46,853 bases of DNA. It comes from Bacteroidota bacterium (lineage in GTDB: Bacteria; Bacteroidota; Bacteroidia; NS11-12g; UBA955). How positions within the stretch are numbered: position 1 is the first letter of the stretch; every line of letters begins with the position of its first letter. Below are positions 14,548 through 41,174 of this stretch, in pieces. The position numbers were made by a program, and so were the translations under genes. The stretch lies in NCBI GenBank assembly GCA_016868785.1, contig VGFS01000014.1, positions 1-46,853 on the forward strand. Direction: 5' to 3'. The notes beneath the pieces are model-generated. The model was not told the DNA's origin and ran no database searches. It was given only the letters and a program-made list of their open reading frames with translations.

Positions 14548-16053
14548 TTACAATCCCATCATCGACCTGATTTCTTCAATGATCTTGCGGTCGTTGCACA
14601 AACGGGGCACTTTGTTTTGTCCGCCCAATTTCCCTTTCGACTTCAACCAATCGTGAAAGGTGTGGGTGGGTACCGACGTCACTTTCGGTAATTTCATCAA
14701 AATATCGGCCTTGCGTTTGGATTTATAATCGTCGTTTGTATTCTGTAACTCCTTGTCTAGCAAATGAATGAATGCATTTAAATCTGATGGAGGTTTTGAA
14801 AATTCAATCAACCATTCATGGCCTGCTTCATCGCTTTGATACAAATAAATGGGCGCTGCTGTGTAATCTGTGACAATGGCATCCATTTCCTTGCAAGCAA
14901 TCGCAATGGCTGTTTCTGCATTTTCAATCACCAGTTCTTCCCCGAAAGCATTGATAAACAATTTGGTTCTACCGGTAATTTTGAAGGTAAACGGGTTCAA
15001 ACTGTGAAATTGTATGGTATCACCAATGACATACCGCCAAAGTCCGCCCACCGATGAGATAACTACGGCGTAATTCACCCCTGTTTTAACAGCCAAAAGA
15101 GGAATTAAATTCTCTGTACTTGGTGTTTCATTTGCGGGATAAAATTCGAAGAAAATGCCCAGGTGTGTCAGCAGTACCAGCTCATTTCTATCGGCTTGGT
15201 ATTGAATGCCAAAGAATCCTTCACTGGCATTGTAGGTTTCAAGGTACTTCACATTATCGCTGGGCAACAATGTTCTGAACTGTTCACGATACGGTTCAAA
15301 ATTTACCCCGCCATGAATAAACAACTCAAAATTGGGCCAAACTTCAAGAATGTGCTTTTTGCCAGTAACCTCCAACACTCGCTGCATCACTACGGCGGTC
15401 CATGTGGGCACACCACTCACACTGGTTACATCTTCATCCTTGATAATTTGGACCATTTTTTCCAATTTATCTTCCCAACTTTCCAACATTGCAACGGATA
15501 CATCGGGGGTACTCTTCCAATTGGCCCAGGCGGGAAGATGCACCATCAGAATCCCACTTAAATCTCCAAAGTAATAAGATTGATCATCCCCACTTTGCTT
15601 TGTGGTTCCACCGATGAGAAGTCCTTTTCCATCAAAAATTTTACCTTCTGGATAAAACCCAAAAAACTGGGTTACGGCTTCTTTGGAACCCTCGAAGTGG
15701 TTGTGTTCCATGATTTCATAACTCATGGGAATAAACTTGGAAACGTTACTCGTGGTGCCGCTGCTTTTAGCAAACCATCGAATATCTCCTGGCCACAACA
15801 GAGATTGCTCTCCTTTTTGGTTTCTTTCGATGTAAGGCAAAAAATCCTCAAAAGTGACAACCGGCACTTTGGCCGCAAACTCTGCGTAAGTAGTGGTTTT
15901 TTCTATGCCAAATTTTCGTCCATATTCGGTGAGTGACAGCTTTTCCATCAACTCAACAAACAAGTTGTTTTGATTTTCTATAGACCGCTCAATGTTGGCG
16001 CGCAATTCATTGACACGCTGTTTGAAATACCAACCAATAATGGGACTGATCAT
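14548..16053 (-). CDS. GH3-family acyl-adenylate-forming enzyme
   Basis: This 501-residue member of the GH3 (auxin-responsive promoter) family belongs to the ANL superfamily, which activates a carboxylic acid with ATP and usually passes it to an amine. The three nucleotide motifs are present: SSGTTS (97-102), YNASEGFFG (near 290) and YVIGDTIQF (near 360). Plant GH3 enzymes conjugate jasmonate or auxin to amino acids; the bacterial substrates are unknown, so I make no substrate claim. Its ATG overlaps the end of the LolD-like ATPase gene by 4 bases (ATGA), making it the last gene of the DUF4199-plsC-gatC-ATPase operon. The C-terminal lid domain is complete. Confidence 0.85.
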
Positions 16054-29342: not shown

Positions 29343-32300
29343 TTAGTTTTTGATGTAAATGTTTCTATCAACTGTGGTTGATCCATATTTAAATACGATG
29401 TAATAGATGCCTTCGGGCAGTGTATCACCATTTGTACCTACGCCATTCCAATCGTTTTTGTAGGTTCCGTTAGATTCATACACAACCTGACCCCAACGGT
29501 TGAATACCAACAATGTCGCTTGAGAGAACACTTTGGCTTTCAAGCCGCGGATATAAAGCACATCATTAATACCGTCACCGTTTGGTGAAATACCCTCTGG
29601 GATAAAGTAATTTGGGTCTATATAGTTGGGGATACCGTCTTTGTCACTGTCGGCCAGACCTTCTTGAATATCGCCGTCTAACAATTCGTCATTGTCAGAG
29701 TCTAGATCGCGCCAGTTGCCTACGCCATCACCATCCGTATCCGTAGATCCTTCAATTTTATCGGATATTCCATCGTTATCTGAATCGAGGTCGAGGTAAT
29801 CGGGCTGACCATCATTATCGGTATCGGTAGTTCCTTCAGTCTTGTCATCGATACCGTCGCCATCAGAATCCAAATCGCGCCAGTTACCGATACCATCACC
29901 ATCAGAATCTACAGTGCCTTCGGTTTTGTCATTGATACCATCGTTATCTGAATCGAGGTCACGCCAATCGCCCACACCATCACCATCAGTATCCGTGGTT
30001 CCTTCGATACTATCCGAAATACCATCGTTGTCTGAATCTGTGTCTAGGTAATCTGCCACACTGTCACCATCGGTATCGGTAGTTCCTTCAATTTTATCAG
30101 AAATACCATCACCATCAGAATCCAAATCCAACCAGTTACCTGCCAAATCACCATCTTTATCTCCTGTACCCTCGGTTTTGTCAACAATTCCATCGCCGTC
30201 AGAATCCAAATCGCGCCAGTTGCCAATACCATCACCATCAAAGTCGTTGGTGCCTTCAGTGCTATCTGCGATACCATCATTATCTGAATCCAAATCGCGC
30301 CAATCGCTTGTTCCATCACCATCTGTATCAACGGTTCCTTCTGTACTGTCTAGAATATTATCGCCGTCTGAATCCAAATCCCGCCAATCGCCGGTGCCAT
30401 CGCCGTCTGTATCAACAGTACCTTCAGAATTATCAGAAATACCATCGTTGTCCGAATCGAGGTCACGCCAATCGCCGATACCGTCTATGTCTGTATCCAC
30501 TGTACCTTCAATTTTGTCGGAGATTCCGTCATTGTCAGAGTCTAGGTCGCGCCAATCGCCAGTTCCATCACCATCGGTATCTACAACTCCTTCAATGTTA
30601 TCGGAAATGCCATCGCCATCTGAGTCCAAATCGAGATAATCGGGTTTGCCATCGCCATCTGAATCTACGGTTCCTTCAATTTTATCAGTGATACCGTCGT
30701 TGTCAGAGTCCAGATCGCGCCAATCACCGGTTCCATCTCCGTCAGAATCGATGTATCCTTCTTTTTTGTCGCTGATACCGTCGTTATCAGAGTCCAGATC
30801 ACGCCAATCGCCCGTTCCGTCACCGTCTGTGTCTATTGTTCCTTCGATCAAATCCGAAATACCGTCACCATCCGAATCTCCATCACGGAAATCTGAAATG
30901 CCATCGCCATCTGTATCAACTACATCTTCTATGCTGTCAAGAATTCCATCAGAATCAGAATCCAAGTCCAAATAATCGGGTTTACCATCACCGTCGGTAT
31001 CCACTGGGGTTGCAGGGTTGCTACCCGCTTCAAAGCTATCTTGAATACCATCGTCATCTGAATCAAGGTCACGCCAGTTTCCACGACCATCACCGTCGGT
31101 ATCAATTCTGCCTTCTACACTGTCTGGGATGCCATCATTGTCTGAGTCAAGATCTAATCGATCTACTGTACCATCAGAATCTGTATCAATGTTACCTTCT
31201 GTTTGATCGTTGATACCATCATTATCAGAATCTAAATCGCGCCAGTCGCGAGTTCCGTCGCCGTCCGTGTCTACAGTTCCTTCAATTTTATCACTGATTC
31301 CATCATTGTCTGCGTCTGTATCAAGGAAATCTGCAACACCGTCACCATCTGTATCAACGGCTCCTTCGATATTGTCATCGATACCATCGCCATCAGAATC
31401 TATATCTCTCCAATTGCCAATACCATCGCCATCTGGGTCAGCAACACCCTCAGTTTTATCGGCAATACCGTCACCATCTGTGTCCAGATCTTTGTAATCA
31501 GGTTTACCATCGCCGTCGGTATCAATTTCATTATAGCCTGTACCGCCGTTAGCAATGATGGGAACACCCGCTGAATTTACAGTTACAGGACTGGTTCCCG
31601 CGATTCCATCGTTATCGGAATCAGAACCGTCTACTTCATAGATATCAAAAATACCGTCATTATCACTGTCTAAGTCTTTGAAGTTGGGTATACCATCGCC
31701 ATCAAAGTCCATGGCAATGTCGCGATTTTCATTTTCGATAAAGTCCAGCAAACCGTCGTTGTCTGCATCCATATCGGCATAGTCAAATACACCATCACCA
31801 TCGGTATCTTTAGATCCTTCCACAAAATCTGGGATACCGTCGCCATCGGTGTCTTTGGCAATAACGGTTACTATTGCTGTATATGGGCCGGTTTTATTCC
31901 CGGAAGCGTCTTGGGTCCATACCAACACATTGTTCACGCCTGTGTCTGAAACTGTCCAATTCAACTTGCTTACATCCAGCGTATCAATGCCACAATTATC
32001 GTAAAGCAAGGCAACCACATTCAATTTTGTCATCGAACCATTTCCGGTAGTGTCAAGATAAACCGTGTGGTTTTTCACTTGGAGCGTTGGTTTGATGGTA
32101 TCATAAACGGTAACGTTGATGGTAGAACTGCTGCGATTTCTGCTGGGGTCTACTGCGGTAATTGTAATCACATTTACGCCCGTTTGAGAGCAGTCAAATG
32201 CACTGTCGCTCATATAAAGGCTGTCAATGTTACAATTATCATAACTACCATTATCGAAATCAGCGGTTGTTAAGTTGGCTTTGCCGTTTACATCAAGGTA

Positions 32301-33872
32301 TAGGGATACGTTCTTCAACACCAAGGTTGGTTTAATAGTATCAAGCACAGTGATGATCAATGTATCCGTAGCCGTGTTGCCATTGGCGTCCGTTGCGGTA
32401 AATACTACTTTATTTTGGGTGTTGTTGTAACCAGAATTCAAACAATTGAATAGGGTTTGAGAGAGCGACGTGGTTACAGTATTACACTGGTCTGCTGTGC
32501 CGAGGTCCACGCTGTCTTTTGCCAACGTTGCCAAACCACTGTTGTCGAGGTATAAAGTAAAATCTCTGGTATTTAAGTTGGGTTTGGTGGTGTCGAGGAC
32601 GTTGACGATGTAATTGACACTGTCTCGGTTGCCATTTATGTCCACTACCTTGAAATTCACCGTATTGTATCCAACATTGGTACAATTAAAACTTGTCTTG
32701 CTAATTGACCGCGATGCAATTGCACAGTTGTCGGAGGAGGCACTGTCCGACATATTCGCTGATACAAACACAGTGCCCAACGCGCCCAAATAAACGGTTA
32801 GAATTTTGTGCGGTACGGGTACTGGTTTAACCAAGTCCACGTGCTTGATGGTGACTTGAACAGTGTCTAAACAACCATTGGCATCTTTTACTTCTGCGGT
32901 ATATTTTCCTTCGTATTTGTTGTTGTAGGTAGTAGTACTTGTATAGGTCGAGGTTGGGGTTAACCAAGTTGTATCCACGCGATAAGAATAGGCCGATGTT
33001 CCACCGGTTGCTGTTAAAGCAATCACCCCTGTTTTGTCATTGTAACAAACTGGGCTTGTGATGGTAGCGGTAAGGTTAAGTACTGATGGTTCAGTGATGG
33101 TAATGCTCACAGTATTTGTACAACCATTGGCATCTTTTACACCGATGCTATAGGTACCTGAAGACAAACTCCCAAAGGTGTTTGTTGAGGCATAGCTACC
33201 ACCTCCGATGTTGTATGTGTATGGGGTTGTTCCTCCAGCTCCCGCAACAGTTACTGATCCGGTTGCGTTACCTTTACAATCAACGTTTGTTGTTGATGTA
33301 GATGAGACACTTAACGCGGTGGGCTCTGTAATTGTTGTTGTTTTTTGACCTGTACATCCATTATTATCTATTACCGTGACAGTGTATGAGCCAGCCTTCA
33401 AACCAGAAGCAACTGCAGTATTCTGTGTTGGTGTGGTATTCCAAGAATAAGAATAATTAGGGGTGCCCCCTGAAACAACCGCTTCGATAAAACCCGTACT
33501 GTTACCAAAACAATCAACATTGGAAAGTTTATTAAGTGGTGTTGAAACTGTAAGTGATACTGCAGGCTCTGAAATGATAACATGCAACGTATCCGTATTG
33601 CCCAAGGTATCAGTTACAGAAGCAATGTAGGTTGCTGCTGGTAGATTGCTAAATATGGGGGAGTATTGGAAAGGACTACCACCATAAATACTATATTTAA
33701 ATCCCGGTGATCCACCAGAAACTTGTAGTTCAAAACTACCGTTTGTGCCACCATTACAAGAGACATTTGTCTGCGAAACAAGAGATAATGTTTGGGCTGA
33801 AAGTGATTGAGAAACAGTCATTAGCGCTGTTAACAAGAACAGACTAAAACCCTTAATTCTATTATTCATCAT
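29343..33872 (-). CDS. Large SprB-like surface adhesin with type-B T9SS C-terminal domain
   Basis: The start at 33872 (MMNNRIKGFSLFLL) gives 1509 residues and a clean signal peptide (about 1-27, ending SLSAQ). An upstream in-frame ATG at 33974 lies before the promoter box. Domains in order are four SprB repeats (about 28-345, each ending in an EP-type motif), four HYR-like immunoglobulin folds each with paired cysteines (about 350-705, DTTKP/DTIKP junctions), about two dozen thrombospondin type 3-like repeats (about 705-1415) and the gliding-motility-associated C-terminal domain (about 1420-1509, FIPEGISPNGDGINDVLYI to VDRNIYIKN). That terminus directs T9SS export with a SprF partner. It should be a long, calcium-stiffened filament used in attachment or gliding. 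It heads the operon. Confidence 0.88.
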   Translation of the reverse strand: MMNNRIKGFSLFLLTALMTVSQSLSAQTLSLVSQTNVSCNGGTNGSFELQVSGGSPGFKYSIYGGSPFQYSPIFSNLPAATYIASVTDTLGNTDTLHVIISEPAVSLTVSTPLNKLSNVDCFGNSTGFIEAVVSGGTPNYSYSWNTTPTQNTAVASGLKAGSYTVTVIDNNGCTGQKTTTITEPTALSVSSTSTTNVDCKGNATGSVTVAGAGGTTPYTYNIGGGSYASTNTFGSLSSGTYSIGVKDANGCTNTVSITITEPSVLNLTATITSPVCYNDKTGVIALTATGGTSAYSYRVDTTWLTPTSTYTSTTTYNNKYEGKYTAEVKDANGCLDTVQVTIKHVDLVKPVPVPHKILTVYLGALGTVFVSANMSDSASSDNCAIASRSISKTSFNCTNVGYNTVNFKVVDINGNRDSVNYIVNVLDTTKPNLNTRDFTLYLDNSGLATLAKDSVDLGTADQCNTVTTSLSQTLFNCLNSGYNNTQNKVVFTATDANGNTATDTLIITVLDTIKPTLVLKNVSLYLDVNGKANLTTADFDNGSYDNCNIDSLYMSDSAFDCSQTGVNVITITAVDPSRNRSSSTINVTVYDTIKPTLQVKNHTVYLDTTGNGSMTKLNVVALLYDNCGIDTLDVSKLNWTVSDTGVNNVLVWTQDASGNKTGPYTAIVTVIAKDTDGDGIPDFVEGSKDTDGDGVFDYADMDADNDGLLDFIENENRDIAMDFDGDGIPNFKDLDSDNDGIFDIYEVDGSDSDNDGIAGTSPVTVNSAGVPIIANGGTGYNEIDTDGDGKPDYKDLDTDGDGIADKTEGVADPDGDGIGNWRDIDSDGDGIDDNIEGAVDTDGDGVADFLDTDADNDGISDKIEGTVDTDGDGTRDWRDLDSDNDGINDQTEGNIDTDSDGTVDRLDLDSDNDGIPDSVEGRIDTDGDGRGNWRDLDSDDDGIQDSFEAGSNPATPVDTDGDGKPDYLDLDSDSDGILDSIEDVVDTDGDGISDFRDGDSDGDGISDLIEGTIDTDGDGTGDWRDLDSDNDGISDKKEGYIDSDGDGTGDWRDLDSDNDGITDKIEGTVDSDGDGKPDYLDLDSDGDGISDNIEGVVDTDGDGTGDWRDLDSDNDGISDKIEGTVDTDIDGIGDWRDLDSDNDGISDNSEGTVDTDGDGTGDWRDLDSDGDNILDSTEGTVDTDGDGTSDWRDLDSDNDGIADSTEGTNDFDGDGIGNWRDLDSDGDGIVDKTEGTGDKDGDLAGNWLDLDSDGDGISDKIEGTTDTDGDSVADYLDTDSDNDGISDSIEGTTDTDGDGVGDWRDLDSDNDGINDKTEGTVDSDGDGIGNWRDLDSDGDGIDDKTEGTTDTDNDGQPDYLDLDSDNDGISDKIEGSTDTDGDGVGNWRDLDSDNDELLDGDIQEGLADSDKDGIPNYIDPNYFIPEGISPNGDGINDVLYIRGLKAKVFSQATLLVFNRWGQVVYESNGTYKNDWNGVGTNGDTLPEGIYYIVFKYGSTTVDRNIYIKN
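29640..31860 (-). repeat. Long 84-bp tandem repeat array (calcium-type repeats) in the adhesin gene
   Basis: About two dozen copies of a 28-residue (84-base) unit are built from DTDGDG, WRDLDSDNDG and IEG pieces. The spacing is exactly in frame through most of the array, with a few longer or shorter units at the 5' end of the coding strand (31500-31860). Neighbouring copies are close to identical in parts, so copy number can change by slippage or recombination without breaking the frame. The complementary strand shows long open frames that are only shadows of the repeat. Confidence 0.9.
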
Positions 33873-33933
33873 AGATTCTTTTTCTAATAAGTTGGAGTTG
33901 GTAATCTTTGTCAAATCACCCTTCCGCACATTA

Positions 33934-33941
33934 CAAAAGTA
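33934..33941 (-). promoter_or_regulatory. Bacteroidota -7 box TACTTTTG for the adhesin operon
   Basis: The box is an exact TAnnTTTG match on the minus strand. The implied start of transcription (near 33928) gives a leader of about 55 bases before the ATG at 33872 and excludes the ATG at 33974. Confidence 0.5.
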
Positions 33942-34086
33942 TGGAATGTTGTTGGTTTTGTTGAACTTCTTCATTTTGATAGCCTTTTTTGTATACTTTT
34001 CGCTATAATTGACAATGAACTTTAAGTGTCAGTTGCCTAAAACACCATTTTTTTTCAATTCCCCCAAAACTCGATGAAATCAATCC

Positions 34087-35697
34087 CTAAAAGAGGTAAA
34101 GACCCCCAAGCAACAATGTAAGAATGCCAGTAACCGCGTTCACAATGTCGTTAGTCATCCAATTAAAACCTTTGGCAATTGCTTCATTTTCTTTGTCGGG
34201 GACATCAGACAAAACACCATCCAACCTGGTATATTTACGCTGAAATAGATCACCCATTACACTGTCTATCAACGTGCCGAGCAGCCCAAAACCCACAATC
34301 AAAATAAAAATCTGCCACTGACCCCAGTGTTTGATTTGTCGCAGTTCTATCCAATCCGAGAGAAAACCATACATTGCAATGGCTACCGCTCCAAAAAATG
34401 CCCCCATGAAACCGGCCATTGTTACACCGCCAGAAACTCCTTTCGACAGTCGTCTACCGCTAATTATACTTCGAGGCTCACCGCCCAGCCATTGACCCAC
34501 TTCACTGCTCAAAGTATCGGCACAACTCGCCGATAGGGTGAACAATGCCAACAACTTACACTTTTCCCCGAATCCAGGACTGATGGAGAAACCGAATATT
34601 TCGGCCGCGCCCATTTTTGCCATGTACACCATCACAGCAGACCCCATATACAATCCACCATTGGCCAATACCTGCCAACGATCCCGGGGTTTTCCATCTT
34701 TTGAATCTCCTAAAATAGAACTTGCGTCCTTTTTTCTTAACCTGCCAACACAACTTGCCATACCCAAGAAAACAACCAACGGCCAAATTGACCAACCCGC
34801 CATTATCACAACAACAAACGCCAATATCCAAGCCATTACGGCACCAGTATTATCCAAAACACGCCATTTATACAACCCAACAGCCACAAAGACAGAGAAC
34901 AATAAATAAACTATCAAAAACCCCGTGCCTTGAAGAAAAAATGCATGTGATTTCCCCAACAATCCCACGAAAATGGCTCCGGAAAACAGCCAAACAGCCA
35001 ATACAACAAATAAGTTGTCCGAGCCTTTGCCACAGATCATTTCTACCATCGCCACAACAAAACCAAACACAACTAGCTGAGGCCAATCAACCGCTCCAAC
35101 CCAATATGCGTCTGGTATTACCCGTCCCAATCCCCACAACATCAACCCCCCTATCAAAACCGCAACCCACCAAAAAACAACAAATCCCAACCAAGATTTT
35201 CGCTCCGATTCTAGCGTAAAAATCCATTTAGAACGATCGCTCAAAGAAGACGACCACCATCGGCCCAACATTCCCGCCAAACCATCGGCCCAAGCCAACG
35301 TGCAGAATGCCCAACCATTCATCCATCGCAGCAAGAGGTTTTGTTGAGTGCTTAATCCTTTCAAAAAAAAGGGCAGTGAGGTCAACAAGGCAAATACCAC
35401 GGAAAAATAAACCATGCCCCAAGGTTTTCTCGATTGCTCTCCCGCCACAATCTCCTCAAACCAACCGCGCTTTATTGCAAACCACAATGCAAAAGAAGCC
35501 ACCCAAGACATCACAGGCAGCAACCATGATTCTATGTTAACAGAAGCAAACGCGGCAACGAAAATCACCACAATGTGCAAACTTTTCCTCAGGTAAAATT
35601 GCCATTGAGGACGCCTTTTCTCCAACGTTACAATCACACCAATGACCAAAACAATTGCGACGATACACCACAGCAAAATTGAATTGGGATTGTCCAT
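34087..35697 (-). CDS. Fusion of phytol/dolichol kinase-like (VTE5) and DUF92 phytyl-phosphate kinase-like (VTE6) domains
   Basis: This 536-residue polytopic membrane protein holds two complete domains. Residues 1-255 resemble CTP-dependent phytol kinase VTE5: RKSLHI (37-42), ADGLAGMLGR (137-146), ERKSWLG (165-171), and the EMICGKGSDNLFV segment (219-231). Residues about 265-536 are DUF92, the family of phytyl-phosphate kinase VTE6: SCADTLSSEVG (391-401), SGRRLSKGVSGGV (413-425), GTLIDSVMGD (474-483) and the final NDIVNAVTG (517-525). Together they would phosphorylate phytol twice to phytyl diphosphate. The divergent neighbour is a homogentisate phytyltransferase, the enzyme that uses this product. 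In plants and cyanobacteria the two kinases are separate proteins. Substrate identity is inferred from family and context, not shown. Confidence 0.82.
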   Translation of the reverse strand: MDNPNSILLWCIVAIVLVIGVIVTLEKRRPQWQFYLRKSLHIVVIFVAAFASVNIESWLLPVMSWVASFALWFAIKRGWFEEIVAGEQSRKPWGMVYFSVVFALLTSLPFFLKGLSTQQNLLLRWMNGWAFCTLAWADGLAGMLGRWWSSSLSDRSKWIFTLESERKSWLGFVVFWWVAVLIGGLMLWGLGRVIPDAYWVGAVDWPQLVVFGFVVAMVEMICGKGSDNLFVVLAVWLFSGAIFVGLLGKSHAFFLQGTGFLIVYLLFSVFVAVGLYKWRVLDNTGAVMAWILAFVVVIMAGWSIWPLVVFLGMASCVGRLRKKDASSILGDSKDGKPRDRWQVLANGGLYMGSAVMVYMAKMGAAEIFGFSISPGFGEKCKLLALFTLSASCADTLSSEVGQWLGGEPRSIISGRRLSKGVSGGVTMAGFMGAFFGAVAIAMYGFLSDWIELRQIKHWGQWQIFILIVGFGLLGTLIDSVMGDLFQRKYTRLDGVLSDVPDKENEAIAKGFNWMTNDIVNAVTGILTLLLGGLYLF

Positions 35698-35700
35698 TAA

Positions 35701-35740
35701 TCAAAGTAACACAAATTCATTTGATTCGTTGTTACTTTGA
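35701..35740. promoter_or_regulatory. Near-symmetric divergent promoter/operator between the kinase fusion and the prenyltransferase
   Basis: The arms tcaaagtaac (35701-35710) and gttactttga (35731-35740) are perfect 10-base inverted repeats. An inner caaat/atttg pair lies between them. Each arm contains TTACTTTG (one mismatch to TAnnTTTG) pointing outward, exactly four bases from the ATG of its gene (35697 on minus, 35744 on plus). The whole intergenic region is 46 bases. The arms could be paired -7 boxes giving near-leaderless transcripts, a repressor operator, or both. Confidence 0.6.
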
Positions 35741-35743
35741 CAG

Positions 35744-36718
35744 ATGCTTTCCTTGATTTGGCGATTTTCGCGACCCCACACCCTCATTGGCTCAAGCATA
35801 AGCATTACTGCCATCCTGTTTTTGCTCATTTTTTGCACCCCAGGACTACCCGTTAAAGGGATAGAAATCCTCACTCAATCGCTCATATCACACAATCTAA
35901 CCGCACGTGTCGTTGGATTTATTCCCGTTGCCAACGCGGCAATCACGGGCTTTGTATCCATTTTACTTCCAACCCTATCAGTATGTTTGGCCTGTAACAT
36001 TTTTATCACAGGGCTCAACCAAATTGTTGATGTAGAACTGGATAAAATCAACAAACCCCATCTACCCCTCGCCTCCGGGGAACTCTCACTTCACCAAGGC
36101 AAAACCATTGTCATCGTTAGCGGCCTAATGGCTATTTTTGGTTCGTGGATGATTCAGCCATTCTTGGGCATTTTAATCACAGTCATTGCCGGCATTGGTG
36201 CGATGTATTCGCTGCCGCCCATCCAATTTAAACGACATCATGTTTGGGCAGCCTCCGCAATTGCCTTGGTTCGAGGTCCGCTCATCAACGTTGGCATCTC
36301 GATCCATTTTGCTACCTTACTGTTCGATTGGCCCGTGGTTGCGCTTCCATGGTTGTTGCCGTTGACCGTTTTTATCACGGCATTCAGTCTGGGCATTGCT
36401 TGGTTCAAGGACATCCCAGATACCCAAGGCGATCAAATCCATGGGTTTAAAACTTTGGCTTTGGTTTGGAGTCGACAAAAAGCACTGTCTGCCGGGAAAT
36501 GGCTCGTGGGCTTGTCATACTTAATTCTCAGTCTATTTTGGTTTCTTATCGATGTTCATATTGCTGCGGCACTCGTTCATCTCATTCTGCTCATCCTTTT
36601 CTGGGGTAGGTCTTCTCGCGTAGATTTGCAATCGACCGATAGTATCAAACGATTTTATTTGTTCTACTGGGGGCTGTTCTTCTTGGAGTATTTAATTCTC
36701 CCATTGTTATTGGCCTAG
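35744..36718 (+). CDS. Homogentisate phytyltransferase-like UbiA-family prenyltransferase (VTE2/HPT type)
   Basis: This 324-residue, roughly nine-helix UbiA-fold protein matches cyanobacterial HPT from end to end: WRFSRPHTLIGSS (6-18), the first Mg/diphosphate motif NQIVDVELDKINKPHLPLAS (92-111), YSLPPIQFKRH (155-165), VRGPLINVGI (176-185), the second motif FKDIPDTQGD (221-230), TLAL (237-240) and FFLEYLILPLLL at the end. HPT joins phytyl diphosphate to homogentisate with decarboxylation, the committed step of tocopherol synthesis. The DGGGP synthase and MenA/UbiA families lack these combinations. It is divergent from the VTE5-VTE6-like fusion. Homogentisate would have to come from tyrosine through HPPD, which is not encoded here. 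The end product, tocopherol or a simpler prenylquinol, is unknown. Confidence 0.88.
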   Translation: MLSLIWRFSRPHTLIGSSISITAILFLLIFCTPGLPVKGIEILTQSLISHNLTARVVGFIPVANAAITGFVSILLPTLSVCLACNIFITGLNQIVDVELDKINKPHLPLASGELSLHQGKTIVIVSGLMAIFGSWMIQPFLGILITVIAGIGAMYSLPPIQFKRHHVWAASAIALVRGPLINVGISIHFATLLFDWPVVALPWLLPLTVFITAFSLGIAWFKDIPDTQGDQIHGFKTLALVWSRQKALSAGKWLVGLSYLILSLFWFLIDVHIAAALVHLILLILFWGRSSRVDLQSTDSIKRFYLFYWGLFFLEYLILPLLLA

Positions 36719-39707: not shown

Positions 39708-41174
39708 TTACTCGGCTGTCGGTGTGCTTGCCGGTCCCTCAGGTCTTGGGCCGCGGTTTCCGCCCTCCGAACGCGGGACTCGGTTATTGGCGCCGCCCTC
39801 CGGACGAGGGCCTCGATTTCCGCCTTCCGGGCGGGGTCCGCGATTCTGTCCCTCAGGACGGGGGCCGCGATTGCCACCTTCAGGCCTTGGGCCGCGATTC
39901 TGTCCCTCCCGTCTTGGGCCGCGGTTATCCGCACGAGGACCTCGGTTATTGCCGCCGCCCTCCGGGCGGGGTCCACGACTGTCGTTTCTACGATCGTTAC
40001 CCCGTCTTCTTCGGTCATTATTGCCTCGGCCATCACGTTTCTCAGAGCCGCGCTTTATCAATGCAAACTCATCATCTTGCAACAACTCGTTGTTGCCAAT
40101 GAAATCATTATTCTGATCTTGTACGCCATTGCTCACCTTTTCCAATATCGCGCTGGCTGGAGCCAAGTCTTGCAAAGCCGCAGATTGCTTTCCGCTGCGA
40201 TTTTCCTCCATCACTTCATTGACCGTTGCCACAGGCAAAGCAACCCAAGTTTGATTGTCGTCATAAGAAAACCACATCAACTTTTTCAGGATGTCTGTCT
40301 TCCTGGCATAAGCCATTCCAGCAACGGTATCCAATTTCACCACCTTCGCTTTCGGGAAGGCATCTATCGCTTCCACGTATTGGTCCAATTCGTAGTTTAG
40401 GCAACACTTCAAGCGACCGCACTGACCGGCCAGTTTTTCCATATTGATACTCAAATTTTGAACGCGCGCGGCCCCTGTATTCACCTGTTTATAATCGGTG
40501 AGCCATGTGCTGCAACACAATTCACGTCCGCAAACACCGGTTCCTCCCAATCGAGAGGCTTCCTCACGGTAGGAAATATGGCGCATTTCAATTTTCACTT
40601 TGAACTCATCGGCATAGCGTTTGATGAGTTCGCGGAAATCCACCCGACTTTCTGCCGTATAAAAGAAAATGGCTTTTCTACCATCGCCCTGAATTTCAAT
40701 GTCCGAAATTTTCATTTGGAGATTGAGTGAAAACGCAATAGTTCGCGCGCGCTCCAGGGTTTGATCTTCTTTGCTTTTAGCTTCTGTTCTGCGTTCTAGA
40801 TCTTTTTCAGAGGCCACGCGCTGAATGCTACGCATTTCCTCGGAATCTTCACGAACGCGATATTTTTTCAACTGCAATCGAACAATTTCACCGGTGGCTG
40901 ATACAGTGCCGATATCGAAGCCAATGCTACTATCAACACATACATAGTCACCCGTGTACAACTCTGAGTTATTGGTGTTTCGGAAGAATTCCTTTCTGGA
41001 CCCTTTGAACCGAACTTCCACCACATTGAAGGGTTTGTGTCCGGTAGGCAAATCCATGTCCTTAAACCAGTCGTGTACGTTCAATGCATTGCAACCACTG
41101 GTACCACAAGTGCCATTGCTTTTACACCCACTGGGTGCGCCGCCTGACTTGGTTCCACAAGATGTACATGCCAT
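39708..41174 (-). CDS. ricT: RicT-like PSP1-domain protein with long RGP-rich tail
   Basis: This 488-residue PSP1/YaaT homologue has a Cys-rich N-terminus (Cys3, 6, 17, 23, 28), the PSP1 core (about 45-300) with the RicT cysteine clusters CGRELCC and CGRLKCC (near 218 and 255), and a charged linker followed by a low-complexity tail (about 385-488) made of repeats of NRGPRPEGG and variants. In Bacillus, RicT joins an Fe-S protein complex that steers RNase Y mRNA cleavage. Bacteroidota homologues carry the core, but their role is little studied. The tail is nearly all Arg, Gly, Pro, Glu and Asn and probably binds RNA. The gene is monocistronic and convergent with carB. Confidence 0.88.
   Translation of the reverse strand: MACTSCGTKSGGAPSGCKSNGTCGTSGCNALNVHDWFKDMDLPTGHKPFNVVEVRFKGSRKEFFRNTNNSELYTGDYVCVDSSIGFDIGTVSATGEIVRLQLKKYRVREDSEEMRSIQRVASEKDLERRTEAKSKEDQTLERARTIAFSLNLQMKISDIEIQGDGRKAIFFYTAESRVDFRELIKRYADEFKVKIEMRHISYREEASRLGGTGVCGRELCCSTWLTDYKQVNTGAARVQNLSINMEKLAGQCGRLKCCLNYELDQYVEAIDAFPKAKVVKLDTVAGMAYARKTDILKKLMWFSYDDNQTWVALPVATVNEVMEENRSGKQSAALQDLAPASAILEKVSNGVQDQNNDFIGNNELLQDDEFALIKRGSEKRDGRGNNDRRRRGNDRRNDSRGPRPEGGGNNRGPRADNRGPRREGQNRGPRPEGGNRGPRPEGQNRGPRPEGGNRGPRPEGGANNRVPRSEGGNRGPRPEGPASTPTAE
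39714..40010 (-). repeat. GC-rich repeats encoding the RGPRPEGG tail of RicT
   Basis: Irregular tandem copies of a roughly 24-27-base unit encode NRGPRPEGG, NRGPRPEGQ and NRGPRREGQ. Base composition is much richer in G and C than the surroundings, and all six frames are open across part of it, producing spurious antisense frames. Confidence 0.85.

What the first reader, a model, noticed from the sequence alone, without database searches (positions are those of the whole stretch)
34087..36718. Phytol-to-prenylquinol (tocopherol-like) module in a Bacteroidota genome
Seen: a kinase-type fusion with VTE5-like and VTE6-like motifs and a UbiA protein with all hallmark HPT motifs sit divergently 46 bases apart. 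Known: VTE5 and VTE6 convert phytol to phytyl diphosphate, and HPT (VTE2) attaches it to homogentisate, the committed step of vitamin E synthesis, a pathway associated with cyanobacteria and plastids. Inference: this organism salvages free phytol, perhaps from algal chlorophyll, or uses another prenol such as geranylgeraniol, to make a lipid-soluble quinol or tocopherol-like antioxidant. Homogentisate would come from tyrosine breakdown.
Basis: partly seen in the sequence, partly recalled or inferred. Interest (0 to 1): 0.88.

Follow-up and report, generated by a model that had tools for sequence, protein, structure and literature searches.

The report
Phytol-salvage prenylquinol genes in lake bacteria
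A non-photosynthetic freshwater bacterium carries, side by side, the genes to re-activate phytol (the tail of chlorophyll) and to attach it to homogentisate, the first committed step of vitamin E synthesis normally credited to photosynthetic organisms, but it lacks the ring-closing enzyme, so the predicted product is a vitamin E precursor-type quinol rather than vitamin E.

Summary
A 536-aa fusion (34087-35697, -) and a UbiA prenyltransferase (35744-36718, +) are divergent, 46 bp apart. The UbiA protein passes NCBIfam's homogentisate phytyltransferase cut-off (274 vs 226 bits) and groups with cyanobacterial HPTs (96/98 support), outside ChlG, MenA, CtaB and UbiA. The fusion's C-half is DUF92 (the VTE6 family); its N-half is homologous to small cyanobacterial VTE5-type proteins (profile E down to 3e-25; hhalign 98%). 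The arrangement is a conserved locus: 35 of 41 Bacteroidota HPT loci with enough flank carry the fusion (or one half), against 0 of 26 cyanobacterial-type loci. Many relatives add a family-less class I methyltransferase overlapping the HPT start. The window's genome has HPPD (446 bits) and mevalonate genes, but no geranylgeranyl reductase over cut-off and no tocopherol cyclase. The five tested HPT genomes lacking the fusion have such a reductase. Best reading: salvaged phytol is double-phosphorylated and joined to homogentisate, giving a methyl-phytyl-benzoquinol-type lipid; tocopherol itself is not supported. Activity, donor chain and product are inferred. No report was found in the library held, though key papers are missing from it. 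New variant of a known kind.

The parts
34087..35697 (-). Fusion kinase gene: VTE5-type (phytol kinase) N-half, about residues 1-250, plus DUF92/VTE6-type (phytyl-phosphate kinase) C-half, about residues 262-536
34927..35697 (-). VTE5-like N-half (motifs RKSLH, WADGLAGMLGR, ERKSWLGF, GKGSDN)
   Evidence: invariant columns; one search hits standalone cyanobacterial homologues at E 2.6e-25 to 2.1e-18; hhalign probability 98.4%
34087..34900 (-). VTE6-like C-half (DUF92, PF01940)
   Evidence: 169 bits against gathering score 27.5
35744..36718 (+). Homogentisate phytyltransferase-type UbiA prenyltransferase with NQIVDVELDKINKP and KDIPDTQGD motifs
35698..35743 (.). 46-bp divergent intergenic region with a perfect 11-bp inverted repeat (35701-35711 TCAAAGTAACA / 35730-35740 TGTTACTTTGA), largely kept in close relatives; probably two back-to-back promoters (inference)

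Best explanation
The two genes form a prenol-salvage and prenylquinol-synthesis module. Free phytol, released from algal or cyanobacterial chlorophyll in lake water, is phosphorylated by the VTE5-like half of the fusion to phytyl phosphate and by the VTE6-like half to phytyl diphosphate. The neighbouring UbiA enzyme (HPT) condenses phytyl diphosphate with homogentisate, made by HPPD from tyrosine breakdown, with loss of CO2, giving 2-methyl-6-phytyl-1,4-benzoquinol or its quinone. The genome has no tocopherol cyclase, so the lipid probably stays an open-chain quinol/quinone acting as a membrane antioxidant or redox carrier; many relatives would add one more methyl group with a methyltransferase encoded next to HPT. 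Shown here: homologies, gene order and its conservation, presence of HPPD, absence of cyclase and of GG reductase over cut-off. Inferred: enzymatic activities, phytyl as donor, environmental phytol as source, product and its role.
For: HPT model above cut-off and tree placement with cyanobacterial HPTs. Fusion halves match DUF92/VTE6 and cyanobacterial VTE5-type proteins. Fusion (or one half) beside HPT or the MTase-HPT pair in 35 of 41 Bacteroidota loci with flank, 0 of 26 cyanobacterial-type loci; divergent in all 39 loci where both ORFs were called. HPPD at G000:C59, 446 bits, next to mevalonate-pathway genes. No GG reductase over cut-off in the window's genome, genus or the tested members of its family; the five tested HPT genomes without an adjacent fusion have one (four over cut-off, one at 153 against 158.8 bits as a fragment), against 2 of 16 with the fusion: the two look like alternative supplies of a reduced prenyl donor. 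Tocopherol cyclase absent, with cyanobacterial positive controls. Nearest relatives are largely lake and reservoir MAGs.
Against: No enzyme activity or lipid has been measured. Five genus members (G004, G005, G007, G010, G014) keep HPT and DUF92 but have no VTE5 domain anywhere and no GG reductase over cut-off, so their source of phytyl phosphate is unexplained. A divergent homogentisate dioxygenase-like gene is present, so homogentisate may also simply be degraded. The GG-reductase pattern rests on few independent lineages, and the substrates of those reductases are untested.
Confidence: 0.66

Rival explanations
1. The module works on unreduced geranylgeranyl groups: the fusion salvages geranylgeraniol and the UbiA enzyme, acting like HGGT, uses geranylgeranyl diphosphate made de novo by the mevalonate route, giving a tocotrienol-type quinol.
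For: The genome has mevalonate genes and no GG reductase over cut-off. HPT can use GGPP when homogentisate is abundant (PMC10925712 abstract). Genus members without the VTE5 half still keep HPT.
Against: If GGPP is made de novo, a dedicated two-kinase fusion fixed beside HPT is hard to explain, and HPT genomes lacking the fusion carry a GG reductase, which suggests a reduced chain is wanted.
Confidence: 0.2
2. The kinases feed a different product: salvaged phytyl or other prenyl diphosphate goes mainly to MenA, or the prenols are polyprenols for glycan carriers, and the neighbouring prenyltransferase is only loosely connected.
For: MenA is also in the genome. VTE5 and DUF92 belong to wider families that include dolichol-kinase-like proteins (prior knowledge), and standalone VTE5-like proteins occur in genomes in which no HPT was found, such as G037, G039 and G041.
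Against: Fixed divergent linkage to HPT, often through a short shared intergenic region, across many Bacteroidota lineages.
Confidence: 0.1
3. The UbiA enzyme attaches the prenyl group to an aromatic acceptor other than homogentisate, giving a novel prenylated phenol.
For: UbiA acceptors are hard to predict from sequence; the Bacteroidota sequences lie apart from the cyanobacterial HPT clade; the associated methyltransferase matches no Pfam or NCBIfam family above cut-off.
Against: Passes the curated HPT model, keeps motifs invariant across the HPT alignment, and HPPD is present in the genome.
Confidence: 0.1

Closest known systems
Cyanobacterial homogentisate phytyltransferase (HPT, VTE2/Slr1736; NF009525)
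   Same: Same curated model above cut-off and same side of the UbiA tree; UbiA motifs conserved
   Different: Bacteroidota sequences form lineages separate from a monophyletic cyanobacterial group; linked to kinases and often a methyltransferase, as no cyanobacterial locus examined is
VTE5 phytol kinase (Synechocystis and Arabidopsis VTE5; named in PMC9782597)
   Same: N-half shares the RK..H, D..A...G, KS..G and E.....G.DN pattern and profile similarity with standalone cyanobacterial proteins
   Different: Fused to a DUF92 domain; distant at single-sequence level
VTE6 phytyl-phosphate kinase (COG1836/DUF92; PMC9782597)
   Same: C-half is DUF92
   Different: Fused in one polypeptide with the preceding kinase; below the TIGR00297 cut-off
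Plant and cyanobacterial tocopherol pathway
   Same: HPPD, phytol salvage kinase and HPT-type genes present
   Different: No tocopherol cyclase; no GG reductase over cut-off; HPT-linked methyltransferase not found in this genome
Euglena longa phytol and tocopherol synthesis (PMC7580956)
   Same: A non-photosynthetic organism holding VTE5, VTE6 and the enzymes from phytyl-PP and homogentisate onwards
   Different: Plastid-bearing eukaryote with separate kinases and full tocopherol synthesis

Membership tests
Homogentisate phytyltransferase (HPT) | Score above curated NF009525 cut-off | tested here: met
   274 vs 226 bits
Homogentisate phytyltransferase (HPT) | Phylogenetic placement with HPTs and apart from ChlG, MenA, UbiA, CtaB | tested here: met
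   IQ-TREE support 96/98 for the HPT set; plant HPT and HGGT were not available for the tree
Homogentisate phytyltransferase (HPT) | Two UbiA Asp-rich motifs (N...D...D and D..D...D) | tested here: met
   N92, D96, D100, D223, D226, D230 invariant in the 18 aligned sequences
Homogentisate phytyltransferase (HPT) | Catalysis with homogentisate and phytyl-PP | not testable with these tools
   Needs enzyme assay
VTE5 phytol kinase | Sequence homology to VTE5-type proteins with the kinase motifs | tested here: met
   the identity of the cyanobacterial hits as VTE5 rests on motifs and size, not on a curated model (searches give none)
VTE5 phytol kinase | Nucleotide-dependent phytol phosphorylation | not testable with these tools
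   Needs assay
VTE6 phytyl-phosphate kinase | DUF92/COG1836 domain | tested here: met
   PF01940 169 bits
VTE6 phytyl-phosphate kinase | TIGR00297 above cut-off | tested here: not met
   69.3 vs 205.85 bits; this model is a hypothetical equivalog of unstated function, so it is not a strict test of VTE6 activity
Tocopherol (vitamin E) pathway | HPPD to make homogentisate | tested here: met
   446 bits at G000:C59:4837-5901
Tocopherol (vitamin E) pathway | Tocopherol cyclase VTE1 (PF14249) | tested here: not met
   Absent in G000 and 57 relatives; 543-550 bits in four cyanobacteria
Tocopherol (vitamin E) pathway | Ring methyltransferase (VTE3/VTE4 function) | tested here: inconclusive
   HPT-linked methyltransferase family absent from G000 but present in relatives; generic methyltransferases not screened
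Tocopherol (vitamin E) pathway | De novo phytyl-PP through GG reductase | tested here: not met
   Best TIGR02032 hit in G000 34.6 bits vs cut-off 158.8

The most novel reading that the evidence does not exclude
Several lineages of non-photosynthetic Bacteroidota, many from lakes and reservoirs, carry a phytol-salvage system (single-chain VTE5-VTE6 kinase, HPT, and in many a previously unclassified methyltransferase) that turns chlorophyll-derived phytol into a vitamin E-precursor-type benzoquinol used as their own membrane antioxidant or redox carrier, without tocopherol cyclase, and with GG reductase as an interchangeable supply route in some relatives.
Probability: 0.5. Interest if true: 0.76.

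Novelty: new variant of a known kind. Interest (0 to 1): 0.64.

Why it matters
Reviews state that tocochromanols are made solely by photosynthetic organisms (for example the abstract of PMC5745509). A conserved salvage-plus-prenylation locus in heterotrophic bacteria would put the committed step of that chemistry outside photosynthesis, give a biological sink for free phytol in lakes, supply single-chain phytol-to-phytyl-PP kinases useful for engineering, and define a new candidate prenylquinol methyltransferase family. It also makes the question of how phytol kinase and phytyl-phosphate kinase couple directly testable in one polypeptide.

Tried and rejected
The N-half gave no Pfam hit above cut-off, so a custom profile was used. 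Foldseek of the fusion model (pLDDT 85.5) against the PDB gave no significant match (best E 0.38). The 237-aa gene downstream of DUF92 in some genus members was considered as a pathway partner but reads as an RsmI-type rRNA methyltransferase (by eye from its sequence; not run against a family library). A UbiA protein near HPPD at G000:C59 was considered as a second HPT, but it belongs to a different UbiA group among mevalonate genes. VTE1-like proteins in three Saprospiraceae HPT genomes (73-85 bits) are not near HPT and resemble the generic cyclase-like proteins of heterotrophic bacteria described in PMC4963081, so they were not taken as tocopherol synthesis. Contamination or a recent cyanobacterial transfer was rejected: the locus is syntenic with CarB in many independent MAGs and the cyanobacterial HPTs form one clade apart from all the Bacteroidota sequences. 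No similar DNA in the plasmid collection. The literature searches found no report of this pair in Bacteroidota, but the VTE6 discovery paper (Plant Cell 2015) is not held, so an earlier mention of such fusions cannot be excluded.

Full report
Observation. The UbiA protein matches NCBIfam NF009525, homogentisate phytyltransferase, with 274 bits against a curated cut-off of 226; no other model comes near its own cut-off. It has the UbiA motifs NQIVDVELDKINKP and KDIPDTQGD, whose key residues are invariant in 18 aligned sequences. The C-terminal half of the other protein is DUF92 (PF01940, 169 bits, residues 267-526), the family of phytyl-phosphate kinase VTE6. The N-terminal half has no Pfam match above cut-off.

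Is the N-half a VTE5? A profile of 15 N-halves (alignment A5) was searched against four cyanobacterial genomes. It found standalone proteins in open frames of 239-300 aa with E-values from 2.6e-25 to 2.1e-18. Those read share the pattern RK..H, D..A...G, KS..G and E.....G.DN, and hhalign gives 98.4% probability. Their naming as VTE5 rests on size and motifs known from that family; no curated model matched in the libraries used. AlphaFold2 gives a confident, mostly helical two-part model (pLDDT 85.5, pTM 0.85), with no significant PDB match.

Is the UbiA an HPT? A 90-sequence tree with UbiA paralogues from the same and other genomes (ChlG, MenA, UbiA, CtaB and further Bacteroidota groups) puts the window protein in a set with cyanobacterial HPTs at 96/98 support. 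The cyanobacterial HPTs form one clade and the Bacteroidota sequences form several deep branches, which speaks against a recent transfer from a cyanobacterium. In an even draw of 392 genomes of the phylum only two, the window's own included, pass the HPT cut-off, so HPT is rare in the phylum.

Conserved locus. The genus and part of the family share the order fusion / HPT / CarB. A scan of 84,980 species genomes gave 80 loci. Of 41 Bacteroidota loci with at least 1.5 kb upstream of HPT, 35 have the fusion beside it (in five of them only one half was recognised: four DUF92 only, one VTE5 half only at a contig end); orientation is divergent in all 39 loci where both ORFs were called; of 26 cyanobacterial-type loci, none have it. 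Many loci also have a ~245-aa gene just upstream of HPT, usually overlapping its start by a few bases. Its sequence matches no Pfam or NCBIfam family above cut-off, but its model (pLDDT 94.6) is clearly a class I SAM methyltransferase (Foldseek probability 1.00 to many). It is absent from the window's genome and present at another place in two genus members. On the HPT tree its linkage needs only two changes. The 46-bp gap holds a perfect 11-bp inverted repeat, largely kept in close relatives, which looks like two back-to-back promoters (inference).

Pathway context. HPPD is present (446 bits) in the window's genome next to mevalonate genes. A homogentisate dioxygenase-like protein is also present but scores far below the hmgA cut-off, as in all relatives; Pfam HgmA_N is met. 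Tocopherol cyclase is absent from the genome and 57 relatives searched with it and from all but three of 47 HPT-bearing Bacteroidota, while four cyanobacteria give 543-550 bits. The three exceptions, of Saprospiraceae type, have VTE1-like proteins of 73-85 bits away from HPT, of the generic kind reported in heterotrophic bacteria. Geranylgeranyl reductase (TIGR02032) is not met in the window's genome (34.6 vs 158.8 bits) or in its genus and tested family members, but is over cut-off in cyanobacteria and in six of the searched HPT-bearing Bacteroidota. The five tested HPT genomes without an adjacent fusion have such a reductase (G043, G045, G048, G089 over cut-off, G092 at 153 bits as a fragment); of 16 with the fusion, two do (G062, G083). 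The counts are small and not phylogenetically independent, but they fit two alternative supplies of a reduced prenyl donor.

Mechanism. Most likely: phytol to phytyl phosphate to phytyl diphosphate (fusion), then condensation with homogentisate (HPT) to 2-methyl-6-phytylbenzoquinol, perhaps further methylated in relatives. Not tocopherol. The main loose end is a sub-group of the genus (G004, G005, G007, G010, G014) that keeps HPT and DUF92 about 40 bp apart but has lost the VTE5 half, with no VTE5 domain and no GG reductase over cut-off in the genome. Either another phytol kinase exists, phytyl phosphate is imported, or these members use GGPP.

Novelty. Each enzyme is of a known kind. The single-chain kinase fixed beside HPT, the unclassified methyltransferase, and their occurrence in non-photosynthetic Bacteroidota without cyclase make this a new variant. 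No report was found in the library available, but the original VTE6 paper is not held and may mention such fusions.

Noticed in passing
L046:8437-9354, L047:10418-11374, L049:4470-5306, L050:8085-8945 (genus members G014, G004, G005, G010; also G007): The VTE5 half of the fusion is cleanly missing while DUF92 and HPT remain divergent, with no VTE5 domain elsewhere in these genomes; source of phytyl phosphate unexplained.
   Followed up: partly
L120:4196-4927, L131:4264-4995, L140:3594-4328 and others: A ~245-aa class I methyltransferase family without a Pfam or NCBIfam name, mostly translationally coupled to HPT (KELEDYxWFP...DLxSGSG...FNAFHHF).
   Followed up: yes
L231:6062-7036, L232:7037-8005, L233:9353-10330: Tocopherol cyclase-like proteins (73-85 bits to PF14249) in three HPT-bearing Saprospiraceae-type genomes, not near HPT.
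   Followed up: partly
L195:4780-5904 and L199:5119-6243: HPPD sits beside a mevalonate-pathway cluster (mevalonate kinase-like and related genes, a further UbiA protein, a PriA-like helicase, read by eye) conserved in the family.
   Followed up: partly
window 29343-33974: 1543-aa SprB-repeat, thrombospondin type 3-repeat and CHU_C type IX secretion protein with 84-bp tandem repeats, followed by PorP/SprF; a probable gliding or surface adhesin.
   Followed up: no
window 14548-16053: GH3-family (plant auxin-conjugating type) acyl-acid-amido synthetase homologue overlapping an ABC ATPase gene and beside an aminotransferase and two amino-acid permeases.
   Followed up: no
window 39708-41174: 488-aa protein with a low-complexity C-terminal tail of NRGPRPEGG repeats (27-bp tandem repeat at 39793-39923).
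   Followed up: no
L261:1501-2361 (G285): The only other HPT over cut-off in the 392-genome phylum draw lies in a near-complete genome without fusion or methyltransferase within about 7 kb; a possible route to a cultured test organism.
   Followed up: partly
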